Both the position numbers and the translations under genes were made by a program. From an uncultured Acholeplasmatales bacterium (GTDB lineage: Bacteria > Bacillota_I > Bacilli_A > Acholeplasmatales > UBA5453), in contig CAKMJY010000097.1 of the NCBI GenBank assembly GCA_927433595.1, positions 1 through 44,369 of the forward strand: a DNA stretch of 44,369 nt, given 5' to 3'. This document shows positions 3,556 through 12,090 of this stretch, piece after piece. Each line of letters begins with the position of its first letter. Position 1 is the first letter of the stretch. The notes below the pieces were generated by a model. It made no database searches, was not told the DNA's origin, and saw only the letters and a list, made by a program, of their open reading frames with translations.

Positions 3556-4887
3556 ATGTCTATAAGCACCCGAAAAATAAATCTATTCTTCATCCTTTGG
3601 ATACTTGTTCCTTTCATGGTTGCGTGCGAAAAGAAAGATGATAAAATCGAACAATTATCATCAACGTTACCGGTCATTTATATAGAAACAAGCAATGCAA
3701 TCGCTAGTCATGAGATATATGAACGTGCCACCATAACTGTGGATGCCATGATGGATATGTATGATTTTACAGATTCAAATGCGGGCATTAGACTTAGAGG
3801 TCATAGCACATCCAACTTCGAAAAGAATCCTTATAGGATTAAATTTGAAAACGATCAAGCCTTGCTTGGTCTTGGTAAGGGTCCTTCTAAGTCTTGGGTA
3901 TTACTGGCTGACTATATGGATCAATCATTGATGAGAAATTATATTACCTATAAAATGGCTAAAAGGATCATGAGAACCTCTTTTGTCAGTGACGTTACAT
4001 TCGTTGAAGTGGTCATAAATCACGTACACAAAGGTGTTTATTTGTTGGCAGAACAGACGCACGTGAATCCTTATAGAGTTGATATTGATGAATCCGGTGT
4101 AAAAGAACAGGATATTGTTGATACGGGGTACTTACTAGAACTAGAAGTAGATGAAAATAGACGATTAGATTCTGGTGCTTTTATGACTGATTGGATAGAT
4201 GTATTAGGCTATACGAATACGGATATTAGGTTCACTTGGGAAAATGCATTTACTTATTCAACGTCATATGAGATTGCGTATTATACAATTAAGAGTGATG
4301 CTAAAAATCCGCTTCAAGTCGAGTTTATCCAGCAATCTTTAGTGAGTTTATATGATGCGGTTTATGTGGCCAAAACGTATGATAGTATAAAACAGGTTCT
4401 AGATATTAACTCTGCAGTTGATATGTATATACTCCAACTCATAACCAACGATTATGACAATAATTTTAGTAGCAATTTCTTATATAAAGATCAAGCAGGT
4501 AAGTTCATATTTGGTCCACCATGGGACTTTGATTTGACATATGGTAACCATTATTTGAACAGAAGTTCTAGTTCAATTAATCTCCATCATCTATTATATG
4601 AACTTGGCAATCAGGCATGGTTCATCACATTGGTAAAAGATAGATTGAACGAGCTAGATACAACCGAGTTATCTTTGTTCGATTATTTGAATCAAGAGAT
4701 AGAAACTATTCAAAACACGTATGAAGTTGAGCTGTTAAGAAACTATCAATTGTGGCAAGATACCAGAAGAACAGATGGTTGGCATATCATTTATAACCAT
4801 TATGATACCTATAATGAGGCAGTTGATGATTTGGTCAGTTGGATAGAAGAGAGATGGCAATTTATAGCCTTGTATCTTGATGTTTAA
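3556..4887 (+). CDS. CotH-kinase-family lipoprotein
   Basis: Lipobox MVAC; IRLRGHSTSNFEKNPYRIKF, SWVLLADYMDQSLMRNYITY, GVYLLAEQ, FGPPWDFDLTYGN are CotH-family signatures. Confidence 0.85.
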   Translation: MSISTRKINLFFILWILVPFMVACEKKDDKIEQLSSTLPVIYIETSNAIASHEIYERATITVDAMMDMYDFTDSNAGIRLRGHSTSNFEKNPYRIKFENDQALLGLGKGPSKSWVLLADYMDQSLMRNYITYKMAKRIMRTSFVSDVTFVEVVINHVHKGVYLLAEQTHVNPYRVDIDESGVKEQDIVDTGYLLELEVDENRRLDSGAFMTDWIDVLGYTNTDIRFTWENAFTYSTSYEIAYYTIKSDAKNPLQVEFIQQSLVSLYDAVYVAKTYDSIKQVLDINSAVDMYILQLITNDYDNNFSSNFLYKDQAGKFIFGPPWDFDLTYGNHYLNRSSSSINLHHLLYELGNQAWFITLVKDRLNELDTTELSLFDYLNQEIETIQNTYEVELLRNYQLWQDTRRTDGWHIIYNHYDTYNEAVDDLVSWIEERWQFIALYLDV

Positions 4888-4949: not shown

Positions 4950-6317
4950 TTATCCTTGGTTATGCGATTCATAACGAATGGTGTGTTCGTAACGGATTTG
5001 AAGTTGTGCTTCAGCATTGAGTGCATTCATTTGTAGTTTGAATTGGTTCATGACTTGATTGTATTGGTTCAAAGTCATTTGTAAGTATGTACCAATGTTA
5101 CCTAAGAACAATGCTTCAAACGATTGTAGTTCAATGTTATGTTCTAAAAATAGTTGTCTATATGTTTCTCTAACGGTTCTAAATTCAGTCATATAATTGC
5201 TTAAGAAGATGATATGGATTTCACCATTGCGGTAGAAGAACACATAGTCATAAGGTAGTTCTTCAGCCACTACGTAAACTTCAACAGCAGCACGAAGATC
5301 AGCTTTTGCTTGTAGGTATGCTTCTAAGGTTGCTTTAGCTTCAGCTTTCAACGCTTCATGGTCACCTTGACCTTGGAATTGTTGGTACTGTGCTTGTAAT
5401 TCAGCCTTGAGTGTTACCAATGTTTCTTCTAGTAATTGAATATTCGCATCTGCGTCTACTTTAGTTTGAATAGATACTTCATAAGGTGTTGGGTCTGGTG
5501 CTTCGATTGCTTCAATTGCAGCCACATATTCACCATATAAAGCAACTGCGGCAGTCGCATCTAAATCAGAATCTACTAATACATCATCAAATACAGTTGC
5601 ATCTGTGGTTAATGCTAATTGTGCTTGAGCATAAATGAAGTTGGTCTTCATATAATGGAATGTTGCTAGGCCATTTGCTTTTAATTGTAGATATGCAAAT
5701 CTTGCATGATCACTAATGAATTGGCTTGTTTCTGCTCTACCAGTTCTAACTTCTGATAATAAGTCTCTAACGCTCATTTCAATGGCTTGTTCATAGGTCA
5801 ATTCGACATTGACTTGCATAGCTGCTTTGATAATTAAATATTTACCAACTGTTATACCAAGTTCATTGGCCATGTCGATATCAACTTGTGCTACTGCTTG
5901 GTTTCCATCTACGACTTCAGCTTCAATATTTTTTGATTCTAAATGGGCTTTTACTTGATTTCTAAGCTGTGTTTGAAGTTCAGTCATGTCAGCTTCATTT
6001 TCCATTTCAGTACGGATGACTAATGCATTTTCAGCATTGGCATCAATATAACCATATGTGGTTGCTAAATCTGTGATTTCAAGGATGGCTTCAATGGCAG
6101 TCTTACCCTTTAAATCAACGTCTAATAGTAAGCCTTCAGCTGCTTCGTTTAATGGGGATACCATTTCAACTTTACCCTCTGCATTGGTTATGATTTCAAC
6201 AGAAGGATTAATGTCCATGGTGATTCTTGCATCTTCAGCAGATGCCTCTACTGATTGACATGCAATCAGTGCGAATAGTGATGTGATCACTAATGCTAAT
6301 GATAATAGTCGTTTCAT
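4950..6317 (-). CDS. Lipoprotein with RsgI-like extracellular domain (ITMDINPSVEI...)
   Basis: Signal peptide with lipobox LIAC; DINPSVEI and ELGITVGKYLIIKAAM segments resemble the upstream anti-sigma protein and the RsgI family. Confidence 0.75.
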   Translation of the reverse strand: MKRLLSLALVITSLFALIACQSVEASAEDARITMDINPSVEIITNAEGKVEMVSPLNEAAEGLLLDVDLKGKTAIEAILEITDLATTYGYIDANAENALVIRTEMENEADMTELQTQLRNQVKAHLESKNIEAEVVDGNQAVAQVDIDMANELGITVGKYLIIKAAMQVNVELTYEQAIEMSVRDLLSEVRTGRAETSQFISDHARFAYLQLKANGLATFHYMKTNFIYAQAQLALTTDATVFDDVLVDSDLDATAAVALYGEYVAAIEAIEAPDPTPYEVSIQTKVDADANIQLLEETLVTLKAELQAQYQQFQGQGDHEALKAEAKATLEAYLQAKADLRAAVEVYVVAEELPYDYVFFYRNGEIHIIFLSNYMTEFRTVRETYRQLFLEHNIELQSFEALFLGNIGTYLQMTLNQYNQVMNQFKLQMNALNAEAQLQIRYEHTIRYESHNQG

Positions 6318-6319
6318 GA

Positions 6320-7645
6320 TTAATTCTCCTTTGTGTTTTGATAGGTTGTAATGATGGTTTGAATATAGGTAGAATCTTTTAATGTTTGAGAAACATCATC
6401 CGATTCATAATAAAGCATAAACTCTACATAAAGTGTGTCTACGATACGCTTGTATGCATGTCCTGCATCGCTTGGCATGTCGTTAAGCAATGTGTTTAAC
6501 CTGTCTGCGATTTCTATGAATATTTGATCTTTAATGTTTGCATCGACAAAGCTTGCTAACTTAGCTAAGCCTTGAATACCGACATTCGGTAATTCAAGTG
6601 TTGCTAATATGTCTAAATCAGCATGTGTATCGACTAAATGGGCATTGAATTTTGTTAACCACAGTTGATACATCGATGACACTTGTGCTTGTAAGTAAGC
6701 TTGATAGTCTGATAACTTAGATTCTAAGTTCAATACTCTTTGATATTGTACTGCCGGTAAGATAGGTATTGTAGCATCTGGAAAGTAGGTAGTTGAAAAG
6801 GTTTGGTACGCTAATGAAAAGGCAATCATGTCAGTTTCATATAACGATTTAAGGTTATTAATGTCTGCAGTTAAAGTTTGGATATATGTGTTAACTTCAG
6901 ATTCTAATAACGCCTTTTTGTTTTCTAACCCTGCTCTATAGGCGGTTACTTTATCTTTTAATAGATCAATTTCATTGGCGATATAGGCCATTTTGATTTC
7001 GTTTAATGCGATGACATCTAGTTTAACCAATTGGTCAAATGTATAGTCATCATGTGTCACTAATATTTGTTGAATCAATAACAATTTTCTAGGGCTAATG
7101 TTTAATGATTTAGCTTCATCTAGAGTGTCCTGATCCACTTCACTGATTGTAATACGGTTTGTAAAGTATGCTTTTAATGCTTGATTCACTTTTTCTTCAG
7201 TAGAAGTCCTTTGGTTATATGCAGCGACCTCGATGGTGGATGTATCTGTTGCATATCCCAATTCATAGGCTTTATTGATTAATGTGTCTAAAGCTTGGTT
7301 GATATCAGAACCTACTAAGTCATAAGACTCAATGAGGACTGCACCATCTAAATTTAGTGCACGGTATGACGTGACTTGATTGTTTTCATCAAGGCTAAAT
7401 TCTACCGATGGATTAATATTAAGTGTCACAAAAGTTGGATAAGACTCACTTTTTGGTAATAAGGAAATACCAAATGTAATCATAATCAGTAACATCAAAG
7501 CCATCGCAAGTTTAGGTTGCCAGATCAAGATATGTTTATGCACTTTTTCTTGTCTAGGGATGTTGGATAAAATAGTATCTTTGATATCTGGGACAAAATG
7601 CTTGCCTTCAGTCTTTAGTTGGTCAATGAGCGACTTTTTAGTCAT
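6320..7645 (-). CDS. RsgI-like membrane anti-sigma factor
   Basis: Short cytosolic N-terminus, one TM segment (LAMALMLLIMITFGISLL), then TLNINPSVEFSLDENNQV RsgI-type domain and coiled-coil C-terminus; overlaps the sigma gene by 8 nt. Confidence 0.78.
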   Translation of the reverse strand: MTKKSLIDQLKTEGKHFVPDIKDTILSNIPRQEKVHKHILIWQPKLAMALMLLIMITFGISLLPKSESYPTFVTLNINPSVEFSLDENNQVTSYRALNLDGAVLIESYDLVGSDINQALDTLINKAYELGYATDTSTIEVAAYNQRTSTEEKVNQALKAYFTNRITISEVDQDTLDEAKSLNISPRKLLLIQQILVTHDDYTFDQLVKLDVIALNEIKMAYIANEIDLLKDKVTAYRAGLENKKALLESEVNTYIQTLTADINNLKSLYETDMIAFSLAYQTFSTTYFPDATIPILPAVQYQRVLNLESKLSDYQAYLQAQVSSMYQLWLTKFNAHLVDTHADLDILATLELPNVGIQGLAKLASFVDANIKDQIFIEIADRLNTLLNDMPSDAGHAYKRIVDTLYVEFMLYYESDDVSQTLKDSTYIQTIITTYQNTKEN

Positions 7646-8165
7646 GTTTGGTACCTCCTTCCAATTGGTTTTTAAGTTTATCCAAAGCTACATTCAGCTT
7701 GAATGTGACACCAGAAGTAGATAGGTTTAATATTTTCCCGACTTCCTTTCTGGTTTTTTGATCTACTACACAACTCATTACGATGATAAACTCATCTTCG
7801 TCTAGGATATGACTTGCTAGATCAATAATAGGTGATGCTGTTTGATCATAGGATTTTTGATTGAGTGTATCAATGTCAACAACGGTTTCTCTCTTCATTC
7901 TTTTATACTGATTGAGCGCTTCATTTCTAGCGATACTCAGTATCCAAGATTTTGGTTGATCTTGCTCTTGATACTTTAAGATATTGTTTAGAACTTTCAT
8001 GTATACATCTTGCATGATGTCCTCTGATATATCTCTGCGTTTAATGATCTGATAAATTTGATAGTAAACCATTCGATTGGTTACATCATAAATGTAATCC
8101 ATGGCATTGTTGTTTCCTTTTTTTAGATCACGCATTGCGTATTTGAGCTTTGTATTATCGAACAT
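7638..8165 (-). CDS. ECF-type RNA polymerase sigma-70 family factor
   Basis: Region 2 (ISEDIMQDVYMKVLNNILKYQEQDQPKSWILSIARNEALNQYKRMKRE) and region 4 HTH; ORF track begins at a GTG at 8192, but ATG at 8165 has a GGAG RBS 7 nt upstream. Confidence 0.85.
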   Translation of the reverse strand: MFDNTKLKYAMRDLKKGNNNAMDYIYDVTNRMVYYQIYQIIKRRDISEDIMQDVYMKVLNNILKYQEQDQPKSWILSIARNEALNQYKRMKRETVVDIDTLNQKSYDQTASPIIDLASHILDEDEFIIVMSCVVDQKTRKEVGKILNLSTSGVTFKLNVALDKLKNQLEGGTKHD

Positions 8166-8366
8166 ATCATCACTCCAAACATCCCTTGACACCTATATAA
8201 CAATTAAAGTTATCGGTTTTGCCAGTAAAATTTTATATTTGTTCAATTTCATTATACAACTTGCTGCGACAAAATATTAATGCACACACGTATTAGACAA
8301 AAATAATTAATAAAAATAATTCTAAATAAGCTTAATTAGACGACAGACTTTTTAAAAATAAAATTC

Positions 8367-8381
8367 TATAAACGGTTTATA
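8367..8381. promoter_or_regulatory. Operator-like palindrome TATAAACGGTTTATA
   Basis: Perfect 7+1+7 inverted repeat in the sigma/pectinesterase intergenic region. Confidence 0.5.
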
Positions 8382-8461
8382 TAACTTTATAGACCAATTT
8401 TACCCGTCTATAGAATTTGATAATGTGAATATTTATTTTCTAACATTTCAAGTACTTAAAT

Positions 8462-8476
8462 TTAAACGCCGTTTAA
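8462..8476. promoter_or_regulatory. Operator-like palindrome TTAAACGCCGTTTAA
   Basis: Perfect 7+1+7 inverted repeat sharing the TAAACG/GTTTA core with 8367-8381; CG core resembles LacI-family operators. Confidence 0.5.
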
Positions 8477-8492
8477 TAAATCGCCAATGACG

Positions 8493-8520
8493 TTGACATT
8501 ACGCGATTTATCAGTATATT
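8493..8520 (+). promoter_or_regulatory. Sigma-A-like promoter for the pectinesterase gene
   Basis: TTGACA (8493-8498), 16-nt spacer, TATATT (8515-8520). Confidence 0.6.
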
Positions 8521-8565
8521 AATAATTAAATATGTACGAATATAACAATATTAGAAAGGGTTTTT

Positions 8566-11500
8566 ATGAAGAACAAAATTGGTTATTTATTATTAATGTT
8601 GGGTGTTTTATTTACTGTGGGAGCATGTAAAAGCACACCTAATTATGATGCGTACGTTGAAGCATATAACTTCAATATACCAAGTGAAGTCACATCCAAT
8701 CTATTTTTGCCTAATCAGATCATCGCTGATGATGATTTCTTAGATGTTGCTTGGTCATCCAGTCATCCAGAAATCATCAACATGGCGGGTACTTTTAATG
8801 CCCCATCACTTGAAATTGGGGATACAGAAGTGACATTAACGGCAACCATCAGAAAAGACACGTATCAAAAAGTATTAATATTTGTTGTTATGGCTAAATC
8901 AGTTGCCACCACACATACCGTGACATTTGATCCTGCAGGCGGTACCAGCGTCCTTAGTCAAGTAATCACGCACGGCCAAACGTTGGTACTTCCTGATGCA
9001 CCAACAAAAGAACATTATGTTTTTGATGGCTGGTACACAAGTTATGCGTTTGATACCATTTGGGATTTTTCAAGTGCTGTTACATCGAGTATGACGCTTT
9101 ATGCCAAGTGGATAGAACAATTTACGATTACTTTCGAGGATAGTGTTGGCGGTGTATTCGATACACAAGTGGTATCAAGTGGCGATAAAGCAACGCTACC
9201 TGGTACTCAACCTGAGAAATCATTCTATACATTTGATCATTGGTTAAAAGAGGGCGTTACATTTGATTTCAATGAAGCGATCACAGCTGATTTGAGGCTT
9301 GTGCCAGCTTATCGTCCGGTCGAATTTAATATCACATATGTGATACCATCAGGCGCAACTTTATCAGAAGATGGCGATGACAAATATTCAGTCGAACAAG
9401 CACCAACTTTAAAAACTGCAATGCTAACTGGCATGAATTTCATGGGCTGGTTTGATCAATCTGAAGGTGGCAATCTAGTTGATTTACCGCTAGGCTCACA
9501 CGGCGATATCACCTTATACGCACAATTTGAAGATGAAAATACCCTACCAACAGGCACACTCATTTATACAAAAGAAGACTTGTTAACCGTTATCAACGAT
9601 GGGGCTACTTCTGATGTCTATTTAATGAATGATATTGATATGACTGGGGTTATTTTGACTGGTAGTCCTAAAACATTCGGTTATACATTTGATGGTAGAG
9701 GTTATACCATTAAGAATGCCATCATCAATGCTTCTGGCAATAAGATGGGTTTCCTATTCAAAGAAGTATTATCCACAGGGATCATCAAAAATGTTACATT
9801 TTCAGACTCAACCCATTTTGGTGGTGGGACTTCTGAATCATCCGCATTTATTTCAGCCTTTGCACAAGGTGGCGCAAGGTTTGAACATATCACATTTTAT
9901 AATGTATCTGTAAAACATGCGGGTTCTTATGCAGGCTTAATCTTCGGTGATGTCATCAATGAGGTCAGTGGAGAAACGATTTATATTAGAAATATCACAG
10001 TCATCAATGACGATAACAACTGGATTGAAGGTAGTTCTTATGTGGGTGGTTTGATTGGTTCTGCAAGAAAACCAGTCACCATTGATATCGAAAATGTCTA
10101 CTTTGATTCTAAAGTCATTGCACCTAACCAAGCGGTTGGGGCAATCATGGGTAGGTTAAATAGTGCAGGTATCACGCTCAATGTTAGACAGACTGTCATC
10201 AAAGGTGATATTGAATCTGCTAAGAATGTCGGTTCAGTCTTAGGCACCAACGTGAGTGGATCAACCTTAATCGCAGATCACATCTATATTAGCGATATCA
10301 CACAAAAATCAGGTACAAACACCGTCAAAATAGGTGCTGGTAATCAACCTTCAGGCTCTATCAATACGGTAACTAACCTTTACTATCAAAGTGAAACATC
10401 CACTTTTCTAGTTGCGGCATTAGAGGTAAGTATCCTAGACGGCACTGGCTTATCTTTTCCACAATTAACAGAAACGTGGTTTAATGAGAGTGGCTTTAGT
10501 CAAACATTCTTTAAGTATGGTCAAACCACCATCGTTAAAAATAGCGACACTCAAGGTGAAGTTGTTGAAACGGGCTTCACTATCTCTAGTGCCAATGTCA
10601 AAAAATACTACATGGTTGGTGAAGCACTAGATTTAACAGGTTTACTGATTTATAAAACGTATTCAGATGGGTCTAGTATCTTACTAGAAGCAGGCTATAC
10701 AGTAGATACAACCGAATTTAGTGATACCCAAGCCGGTACATACTCTATATATGTGACATATAATAATGACATCAAGTCATTTGAAGTCAATGTGATCGAA
10801 ATCACTGGTGTTTTAGCAGAACCACTATTTATGAAACAAACCTACTTAGTTGGCGATACAATCAATTATAGCAATCTAGTCTTAAAGGCCATCCTAAGTG
10901 ATGGCACACACCTTATCTTAAATGAATCTGATTATACGAAAGACCTTACTGCAGTTAATATGGCCATAGCAGGTGAATACCAAATTGGGTTTATTTACAA
11001 ATCTTTTTCACCAGTATATGTCGATATATATGTAACAGATTTATCAGTCATCACAGCAGGTATGGTTGAAATCAATGTCAATCAAAGCGTCACTAGCATA
11101 GATGGTGATGGCGAAGACCGTCCAACCTTTAAAACGATGAAGTCAGCTTTACAATACTTGGTGAATCAGAATTACGCATCGGAACTTGAAAAAGTGATTT
11201 ACATATCAGATGGCACCTATGATGAAAAAATCACCATCACAGTACCGAATCTAACCTTAGTTGGACAAAGCAGAACAAACACGATTTTAACGTATGATGC
11301 TGCATCCGGTTTAAAACAACCGAACGGATCAACATGGGGCACACAAGGGTCGGCAAGTGTATCTGTCAAGAGTTCAGCAACCAACTTTATGGCAACCAAT
11401 CTTACAATTCAAAATCATTTTGACTATAATGGGTCAACGATTTTGGATAAACAAGGCGTCGCTTTAGTGAATGAAGCCGATCAAGTGATCTTTTATCAAG

Positions 11501-12090
11501 TAGATTTTAAAGGTTATCAAGATACACTTTACGCTAAATCTGGTAGACAATATTATCTAGATGTTTATATTGAAGGGGTGGTCGATTACATTTTTGGTAA
11601 TGGCGGACCTGCATTCTTTGAACAAGCTATCATTAAGAACTTAGCAAGATCGACAGGCGTTATTTCAACCAATAAAGGCTATAACACATCTAGCAGTGCA
11701 CTTGTGACATATGGGTATGTTTTCTATCAAAATGAATTTATATTTGAAGTAGGCGTGCCATCAGGGTCTGTCGATTTAGGTAGACCATGGGATCAATCAG
11801 CAGCCATCGCTTATATCGATAATAAGTTTGATACACACATCACGACAAGAGGTTGGACAGAGATGTCTGGTAATTTACCTGAGAATGCGCGATTCTATGA
11901 GTACCAAAACAAAGATTTATTCGGTTTGATGATACCAAAGACAACCATAGGCAAACCAATAACCGAACAAGAAGCATTGAATTACACCAACAAAGCCATT
12001 GTATTCGGACAATTAAATGGCGCGGTTGACTTTGGCAGTGCTTGGGATTATAGTAGTGATCTTATAATGCTTCAAGGACACTTAAATTAA
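8566..12090 (+). CDS. Large multidomain lipoprotein with C-terminal pectin methylesterase (CE8-like) domain
   Basis: Lipobox GAC; InlB/Flg_new-type repeats (FDPAGGT...FDGWYT...LYAKW); Ig-like segments; C-terminus has GTYDEKI, QGVAL, GYQDTLY, VDYIFGNGG, LGRPWD pectinesterase motifs. Confidence 0.85.
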   Translation: MKNKIGYLLLMLGVLFTVGACKSTPNYDAYVEAYNFNIPSEVTSNLFLPNQIIADDDFLDVAWSSSHPEIINMAGTFNAPSLEIGDTEVTLTATIRKDTYQKVLIFVVMAKSVATTHTVTFDPAGGTSVLSQVITHGQTLVLPDAPTKEHYVFDGWYTSYAFDTIWDFSSAVTSSMTLYAKWIEQFTITFEDSVGGVFDTQVVSSGDKATLPGTQPEKSFYTFDHWLKEGVTFDFNEAITADLRLVPAYRPVEFNITYVIPSGATLSEDGDDKYSVEQAPTLKTAMLTGMNFMGWFDQSEGGNLVDLPLGSHGDITLYAQFEDENTLPTGTLIYTKEDLLTVINDGATSDVYLMNDIDMTGVILTGSPKTFGYTFDGRGYTIKNAIINASGNKMGFLFKEVLSTGIIKNVTFSDSTHFGGGTSESSAFISAFAQGGARFEHITFYNVSVKHAGSYAGLIFGDVINEVSGETIYIRNITVINDDNNWIEGSSYVGGLIGSARKPVTIDIENVYFDSKVIAPNQAVGAIMGRLNSAGITLNVRQTVIKGDIESAKNVGSVLGTNVSGSTLIADHIYISDITQKSGTNTVKIGAGNQPSGSINTVTNLYYQSETSTFLVAALEVSILDGTGLSFPQLTETWFNESGFSQTFFKYGQTTIVKNSDTQGEVVETGFTISSANVKKYYMVGEALDLTGLLIYKTYSDGSSILLEAGYTVDTTEFSDTQAGTYSIYVTYNNDIKSFEVNVIEITGVLAEPLFMKQTYLVGDTINYSNLVLKAILSDGTHLILNESDYTKDLTAVNMAIAGEYQIGFIYKSFSPVYVDIYVTDLSVITAGMVEINVNQSVTSIDGDGEDRPTFKTMKSALQYLVNQNYASELEKVIYISDGTYDEKITITVPNLTLVGQSRTNTILTYDAASGLKQPNGSTWGTQGSASVSVKSSATNFMATNLTIQNHFDYNGSTILDKQGVALVNEADQVIFYQVDFKGYQDTLYAKSGRQYYLDVYIEGVVDYIFGNGGPAFFEQAIIKNLARSTGVISTNKGYNTSSSALVTYGYVFYQNEFIFEVGVPSGSVDLGRPWDQSAAIAYIDNKFDTHITTRGWTEMSGNLPENARFYEYQNKDLFGLMIPKTTIGKPITEQEALNYTNKAIVFGQLNGAVDFGSAWDYSSDLIMLQGHLN

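What the first reader, a model, noticed from the sequence alone, without database searches (positions are those of the whole stretch)
4950..12090. Candidate surface-sensing system: ECF sigma + RsgI-like anti-sigma + lipid-anchored RsgI-like paralogue, divergent from a pectin methylesterase lipoprotein
Seen: three minus-strand genes with 8-nt overlap then 2-nt gap encode an ECF-type sigma, a one-TM protein with TLNINPSVEF, and a lipoprotein with the matching TMDINPSVEI. Both carry a similar downstream segment (SLNISPRKLLLIQQIL / ELGITVGKYLIIKAAM). The lipoprotein has no cytosolic or TM anti-sigma part. Divergently transcribed is a 1174-aa lipoprotein ending in a pectinesterase domain. Known: RsgI-type anti-sigma factors control SigI, and in cellulolytic clostridia sense polysaccharides. 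Inference: this is a Mollicute version using an ECF-type sigma plus a second soluble or lipid-anchored copy of the sensor domain (competitor or second ligand receptor) to control surface polysaccharide enzymes.
Basis: partly seen in the sequence, partly recalled or inferred. Interest (0 to 1): 0.82.

Follow-up and report, generated by a model that had tools for sequence, protein, structure and literature searches.

The report
Self-regulated sigma factor with sensor-copy lipoprotein
A wall-less bacterium carries a three-gene stress switch (an ECF sigma factor, the membrane sensor that presumably holds it back, and a lipid-anchored extra copy of that sensor's outer domain) that appears to switch on its own operon rather than the neighbouring pectin-degrading enzyme, and the same arrangement recurs in many related bacteria.

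Summary
In detail: an ECF sigma, a one-TM protein and a lipoprotein form a minus-strand operon, and both exported proteins carry the RsgI "CRE" domain (Pfam RsgI_M, E 5e-25 and 1e-22; AlphaFold models match solved RsgI domains). The anti-sigma lacks RsgI_N and pairs with a true ECF sigma, so it is RsgI-like only outside the cell. The pectinesterase link fails: the pair is unlinked in same-genus genomes, and the enzyme gene lacks the operon's promoter motif.

New here: (1) the ECF + CRE-lipoprotein arrangement occurs in 52 of 80 related loci, in either gene order, across Acholeplasmatales, Izemoplasma-like bacteria and Clostridia. (2) A conserved bipartite promoter motif (22 bits against 10 in shuffles) precedes the operon. 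It is unique in this genome, and elsewhere it sits directly before the lipoprotein gene. (3) The same genome holds a second trio with an unrelated ectodomain, again present in both anti-sigma and lipoprotein, under the same type of motif.

Best explanation: an autoregulated envelope-stress switch whose main output is a lipid-anchored copy of its own sensor domain, probably a feedback regulator. Operon and motif are shown by sequence; proteolysis and feedback are inferred. New variant of a known kind.

The parts
8190..8227 (-). Conserved bipartite promoter-like motif TACTGGCAAAAC-N12-TTGTTATATAGGTG upstream of the sigma gene (putative ECF-sigma autoregulatory promoter)
   Evidence: Gibbs motif 22.0 bits vs 9.6-10.1 in shuffles; unique in window, 0 in 100 shuffles; unique in own genome
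7638..8192 (-). ECF sigma factor (likely true start ATG at 8165, about 175 aa)
   Evidence: Sigma70_r2 E 2.1e-10, TIGR02937 56.8 bits above cut-off over full model; orthologues with clear sigma region 4
6320..7645 (-). One-TM anti-sigma-like protein: cytosolic aa 1-43 (VPD motif), TM about 44-61, CRE/RsgI_M aa 72-193, helical C-terminal region
   Evidence: PF23750 E 5.5e-25; AlphaFold pLDDT 87.6; Foldseek to 8t9n B. subtilis RsgI E 4.8e-5
7067..7432 (-). CRE (RsgI_M) domain of the anti-sigma; NINP|SVEF motif, N78-P79, at 7409-7414
4950..6317 (-). Lipoprotein (lipobox Cys20) with CRE/RsgI_M aa 30-164 and a helical C-terminal region; no cytosolic or TM anti-sigma part
   Evidence: PF23750 E 9.6e-23; AlphaFold pLDDT 89.0; Foldseek to 8her RsgI6 E 8e-7
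5826..6230 (-). CRE (RsgI_M) domain of the lipoprotein; DINP|SVEI motif, N37-P38, at 6204-6209
8566..12090 (+). Neighbour, judged NOT part of the system: 1174-aa pectinesterase lipoprotein with List_Bact_rpt and Big_3 domains

Best explanation
The three genes are an autoregulated ECF sigma / membrane anti-sigma / CRE-lipoprotein switch for the cell envelope. At rest the short cytosolic N-terminus of the one-TM protein holds the ECF sigma. Its outer CRE domain is expected to cut itself at the conserved Asn-Pro bond and stay together non-covalently, as in RsgI. When a membrane or surface insult pulls the two pieces apart, an RseP-type protease frees the sigma. The sigma then transcribes its own operon from the conserved promoter motif, and with it the lipoprotein. 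The lipoprotein is a lipid-anchored copy of the sensor's outer domain; it most likely acts back on the system by competing for the same ligand or partner, or by capping the sensor, so that the response shuts itself off. SHOWN by sequence or model: domains, topology, operon, motif, its uniqueness, conservation of the trio and of the motif before lipoprotein genes. INFERRED: sigma/anti-sigma binding, that this sigma reads the motif, self-cleavage in these two proteins, RseP cleavage, the stress signal, and the feedback role.
For: CRE domain in both proteins. Five PDB chains of RsgI CRE domains begin exactly at the Pro of the aligned N|P; N-P lies between strands 1 and 2 in both models and is invariant in both alignments. 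Published RsgI route: self-cleavage, RseP, ClpXP (PMC12203970; PMC10202637). RseP-like Peptidase_M50 present in the genome. ECF + CRE lipoprotein in 52 of 80 loci, two gene orders (41 sigma-first, 11 lipoprotein-first). Motif 22 bits vs 10, also before the lipoprotein gene when that is first, before the lipoprotein inside the operon in all 11 f4 genomes, and before stand-alone CRE lipoproteins. Only copy in own genome. Parallel trio with an unrelated ectodomain, again duplicated in a lipoprotein under the same motif. Other motif-linked genes include secreted S8 subtilases and surface lipoproteins.
Against: No experiment. Sigma/anti-sigma interaction and lipoprotein/anti-sigma contact were not tested (no multimer prediction). 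In the window anti-sigma the Asp at -2 of the cleavage motif is Asn (NINP), and it varies in other ECF-linked anti-sigmas, so self-cleavage there is uncertain. In f4 genomes the anti-sigma's outer domain is a different family from the lipoprotein's, so simple competition between identical domains cannot be the whole rule. The lipoprotein could be an effector and not a regulator. The 80 loci were found with a pattern containing DINPS, so the motif's conservation among those lipoproteins is partly by selection.
Confidence: 0.55

Rival explanations
1. The lipoprotein is simply the main protective product of the sigma (a surface binding or membrane-stabilising protein) that happens to use the same domain as the sensor; it does not regulate the switch.
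For: The motif lies directly before lipoprotein genes, including stand-alone ones and a triple-CRE lipoprotein away from any sigma, as expected for an effector; in f4 the anti-sigma ectodomain is unrelated to the lipoprotein's.
Against: Homologous ectodomain in anti-sigma and lipoprotein arises with two unrelated domain families, which a pure effector role does not predict.
Confidence: 0.27
2. The lipoprotein is a resting-state co-inhibitor, as RseB is for RseA: it binds the anti-sigma outside the cell and blocks signal-dependent release until it captures the stress ligand.
For: Third gene of a sigma/anti-sigma operon with tight spacing, a place like that of rseB in the rpoE operon (PMC8103513; PMC10202637).
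Against: No contact evidence; the fold is CRE and the best structural matches are RsgI only; stand-alone copies exist.
Confidence: 0.13
3. One reading: a polysaccharide sensor that controls surface glycan enzymes, among them the divergent pectinesterase.
For: Divergent neighbour; RsgI proteins of cellulolytic clostridia sense polysaccharides (PMC12203970).
Against: No shared motif, no conserved linkage, no carbohydrate domain, and a TTGACA-N16-TATATT sigmaA-like site precedes the enzyme gene (such sites are not above chance there).
Confidence: 0.04

Closest known systems
SigI-RsgI (Bacillus subtilis, Clostridium thermocellum)
   Same: One-TM anti-sigma with the CRE/RsgI_M domain just outside the membrane, Asn-Pro between strands 1 and 2, RseP-type protease in the genome; sigma gene immediately upstream
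   Different: No RsgI_N; sigma is a sigma2+sigma4 ECF and not SigI; no carbohydrate-binding or enzyme domain; extra CRE lipoprotein in the operon
RpoE-RseA-RseB of E. coli and AlgU-MucA-MucB of Pseudomonas
   Same: ECF sigma, membrane anti-sigma and an exported third component encoded together, with autoregulation
   Different: From general knowledge, RseB/MucB are not homologous to the anti-sigma ectodomain and are not lipoproteins; no CRE domain
SigE-CseA of Streptomyces (from memory, not tested)
   Same: A lipoprotein that modulates a sigma response, encoded beside the sigma
   Different: Works with a two-component system (CseBC); unrelated domain
Sigma24C-Rsi24C of C. thermocellum (from memory; only the name was met)
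   Same: ECF-type sigma paired with a polysaccharide-linked anti-sigma
   Different: Carries an enzyme domain; no sensor-copy lipoprotein known to me

Membership tests
RsgI anti-sigma-I factors | N-terminal RsgI_N domain (PF12791) that binds SigI | tested here: not met
   No PF12791 in own genome or in the protein; canonical RsgI controls L111 and L130 have it
RsgI anti-sigma-I factors | CRE/RsgI_M periplasmic domain | tested here: met
   PF23750 E 5.5e-25 and 9.6e-23; PDB RsgI chains E down to 1.6e-21; Foldseek
RsgI anti-sigma-I factors | Asn-Pro cleavage motif between strands 1 and 2 | tested here: met
   N78-P79 and N37-P38 between strands in models; cleavage itself not testable with these tools
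RsgI anti-sigma-I factors | Cognate SigI (sigma2 plus SigI-C, no sigma4) | tested here: not met
   ECF: TIGR02937 over the full model, sigma region 4 clear in orthologues
RsgI anti-sigma-I factors | C-terminal polysaccharide sensor (CBM, GH, PA14) as in C. thermocellum | tested here: not met
   No such domain in Pfam scan; helical C-terminal region. B. subtilis RsgI is reported to sense cell-wall defects, so this feature does not hold for the whole family
ECF sigma factors with membrane anti-sigma | sigma2+sigma4 only, adjacent one-TM anti-sigma gene, own promoter motif | tested here: met
   window region 4 itself is weak (E 0.03)
ECF sigma factors with membrane anti-sigma | Physical inhibition of the sigma by the anti-sigma | not testable with these tools
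   No multimer prediction or experiment
RseB/MucB co-regulators | RseB-like fold | tested here: not met
   The lipoprotein is CRE plus helical region; Foldseek hits with E <= 0.001 are RsgI only
RseB/MucB co-regulators | Binding to the anti-sigma ectodomain | not testable with these tools
   No multimer prediction or experiment

The most novel reading that the evidence does not exclude
A general regulatory design, used with at least two unrelated ectodomain families: an ECF sigma whose conserved primary target is a lipid-anchored copy of its own anti-sigma's sensor domain, made to titrate the signal or cap the sensor (a 'mirror-receptor' feedback).
Probability: 0.33. Interest if true: 0.8.

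Novelty: new variant of a known kind. Interest (0 to 1): 0.62.

Why it matters
Wall-less bacteria keep few regulators, yet this switch survives, with a domain best known from cellulose sensing and cell-wall homeostasis. It shows the self-cleaving CRE domain used with ECF sigmas and detached from the membrane helix, which opens a test of what that domain actually senses. A sigma whose main output is a copy of its own sensor would be an unusual feedback design; the predicted promoter and targets make it directly testable.

Tried and rejected
Pectinesterase as target: no motif, no conserved linkage. A first motif regular expression was too strict and missed the true sites; replaced by motif discovery. 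The idea that lipoproteins keep the Asp of DxNP while anti-sigmas lose it is kept only as a hint, because the scan that fetched L051-L130 used a DINPS pattern. Homology of the short cytosolic tails between the two trio types is weak (best 13 bits against 3.6 in shuffles) and not claimed. f4 anti-sigma ectodomain: no Pfam family. The key cleavage paper (Sci. Adv. doi 10.1126/sciadv.adg4846, recalled from memory) is not in the library. No prior description of an ECF + CRE-lipoprotein module was found; the library is incomplete.

Full report
OBSERVATION. The first is an ECF sigma: Sigma70_r2 E 2e-10 and the ECF superfamily model TIGR02937 over its full length at 56.8 bits against a cut-off of 42.9. 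Region 4 is weak in the window copy (E 0.03) but clear in orthologues. The second and third proteins both match RsgI_M, PF23750, at 5.5e-25 and 9.6e-23, and no other RsgI_M gene was found in the genome (the genome is about 86% complete). Profile-profile comparison of the two families gives probability 99.95 and E 8e-38 over 187 columns. No RsgI_N was found in the genome, while canonical RsgI controls L111 and L130 carry it.

WHAT THE DOMAIN IS. Profiles of both proteins hit the solved RsgI periplasmic domains 8her, 8hep, 8heq, 8hdj, 8u9o and 8t9n with E-values down to 1.6e-21. Five of these chains start at the Pro that aligns with the Pro of NPSVE, i.e. the deposited chain begins after an Asn|Pro cut; the literature describes this self-cleavage, followed by RseP and ClpXP steps (PMC12203970), and for B. 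subtilis a cleaved but still associated RsgI that senses cell-wall defects (PMC10202637). AlphaFold models of the window anti-sigma (pLDDT 87.6) and lipoprotein (pLDDT 89.0) place the Asn-Pro between strands 1 and 2, and the only Foldseek PDB matches at E <= 0.001 are RsgI domains. N, P and a downstream Asn are invariant in both alignments. In the window anti-sigma the residue two before the N is Asn and not Asp, and this residue varies in other ECF-linked anti-sigmas, so cleavage there is not assured. A site-2 protease homologue is encoded.

CONSERVATION. In 20 of 101 related genomes RsgI_M is present. Neighbourhoods show the same trio with different flanks: genes that look like aspS, hisS and msrA in close relatives, leuS- and polC-sized genes in family f4 (names from my reading of the translations). 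A scan of GTDB genomes gave 80 loci; 52 have an ECF sigma beside a CRE lipoprotein, 41 in the order sigma...lipoprotein and 11 in the order lipoprotein...sigma. They come from Acholeplasmataceae, Izemoplasma-like, Haloplasma-like and uncultured Clostridia records. Caveats: the 80 are those most similar to the lipoprotein query, and the scan pattern contained DINPS.

PROMOTER. Unaligned upstream regions of 54 cassettes share one bipartite motif, CCAATAAAA-N12-TTGTATAtt.GTG, 22.0 bits against 9.6-10.1 in four shuffled sets. The window form is TACTGGCAAAAC-N12-TTGTTATATAGGTG at 8190-8227. It was not in the training set and scores 13.1, the best of the window, while the pectinesterase upstream region scores -6.9 and no other window gene exceeds 5.8. 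A strict pattern finds exactly one copy in the own genome, in front of this operon, and one each in G001, G004, G006 and G011; genomes of the genus or family without the cassette (G002, G003, G008) have no exact copy. In lipoprotein-first loci the motif precedes the lipoprotein. In all 11 f4 genomes a second copy sits inside the operon directly before the lipoprotein gene, and 10 of 11 also have it before the sigma (downstream genes identified for part of them). Stand-alone CRE lipoproteins L049 and L040 carry it too. So the lipoprotein, rather than any glycan enzyme, is the constant target. Other genes behind motif copies are secreted S8 subtilases, a DUF2202 lipoprotein and a weakly trypsin-like lipoprotein; these look like surface or envelope functions, but each rests on few sites, and reversed-pattern controls give 12 hits against 45.

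A PARALLEL SYSTEM. In f4 genomes the anti-sigma's outer part is a different, beta-rich family without a Pfam name (unrelated to CRE by profile comparison). Searching with it revealed, in the window's own genome, a second trio on contig C75: lipoprotein, ECF sigma and one-TM anti-sigma, both exported proteins carrying this second domain. The same trio exists in G001, G003, G024, G026, G032 and G044, and the same type of motif precedes the lipoprotein; the matrix trained only on CRE cassettes ranks these lipoprotein genes at or near the top of their loci. In the own genome this motif form also precedes a secreted S8 subtilase. In G005 an extra lipoprotein with the second domain (40 bits against at most 8 for shuffles) lies behind the CRE-type motif. 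Thus an anti-sigma ectodomain and a lipoprotein of the same family are paired with two unrelated domains, with f4 as a hybrid.

PECTINESTERASE. The large pectinesterase has relatives in G001 (contig C1) and G006 (C35), on contigs other than those of their cassettes (C3 and C2), and none of 1139 neighbour proteins is a pectinesterase or CotH protein. Its upstream region has a TTGACA-N16-TATATT site and inverted repeats, which would fit ordinary sigmaA control but is not above chance. Divergent placement here is therefore most likely incidental.

MECHANISM. Shown by sequence: domains, operon, motif, uniqueness, conservation. From established knowledge: membrane anti-sigmas of this shape are destroyed by regulated proteolysis, and CRE domains self-cleave in C. 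thermocellum RsgI. Inferred: this sigma reads the motif; the anti-sigma is cut in the same way; the signal is envelope damage; the lipoprotein feeds back. Feedback is preferred over a pure effector because sensor and lipoprotein share a domain family in two independent cases; the f4 hybrid and stand-alone copies argue the other way, hence the moderate confidence.

VERDICT. Real, conserved, and not described in the papers I could search. It works like an RsgI/ECF hybrid but is not a SigI-RsgI pair: two defining features (RsgI_N, SigI) were tested and not met.

Noticed in passing
G000:C75, locus L209 1199-4142: Second trio in the same genome: lipoprotein, ECF sigma and one-TM anti-sigma sharing an unnamed beta-rich ectodomain unrelated to CRE; promoter motif before the lipoprotein.
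   Followed up: yes
L221 (G000:C43), L223, L220, L164, L154, L172: Secreted S8 subtilases directly downstream of the same type of motif in six genomes, a likely shared target of these sigmas.
   Followed up: partly
L040 7016-9391: 791-aa lipoprotein with three CRE domains, away from any sigma gene, with a motif-like site upstream.
   Followed up: partly
L049 7849-8730: Stand-alone single-CRE lipoprotein with the motif, in a genome that also has the full cassette elsewhere.
   Followed up: partly
window 8366-8380, 8462-8476 and 8476-8511: Inverted repeats (around ATAAACGGTTTAT, TTAAACG/CGTTTAA, and ATAAATCGC...GCGATTTAT) before the pectinesterase gene; possible repressor operators.
   Followed up: no
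window 3556-4887: CotH-kinase-domain lipoprotein gene convergent with the operon; an inverted repeat (AGAGACG...CGTCTCT) lies between them, possibly a shared terminator.
   Followed up: no
G000:C22:2986-3183 and G000:C7:14303-14512: Two further ECF-like sigma genes in the genome, partners not examined.
   Followed up: no
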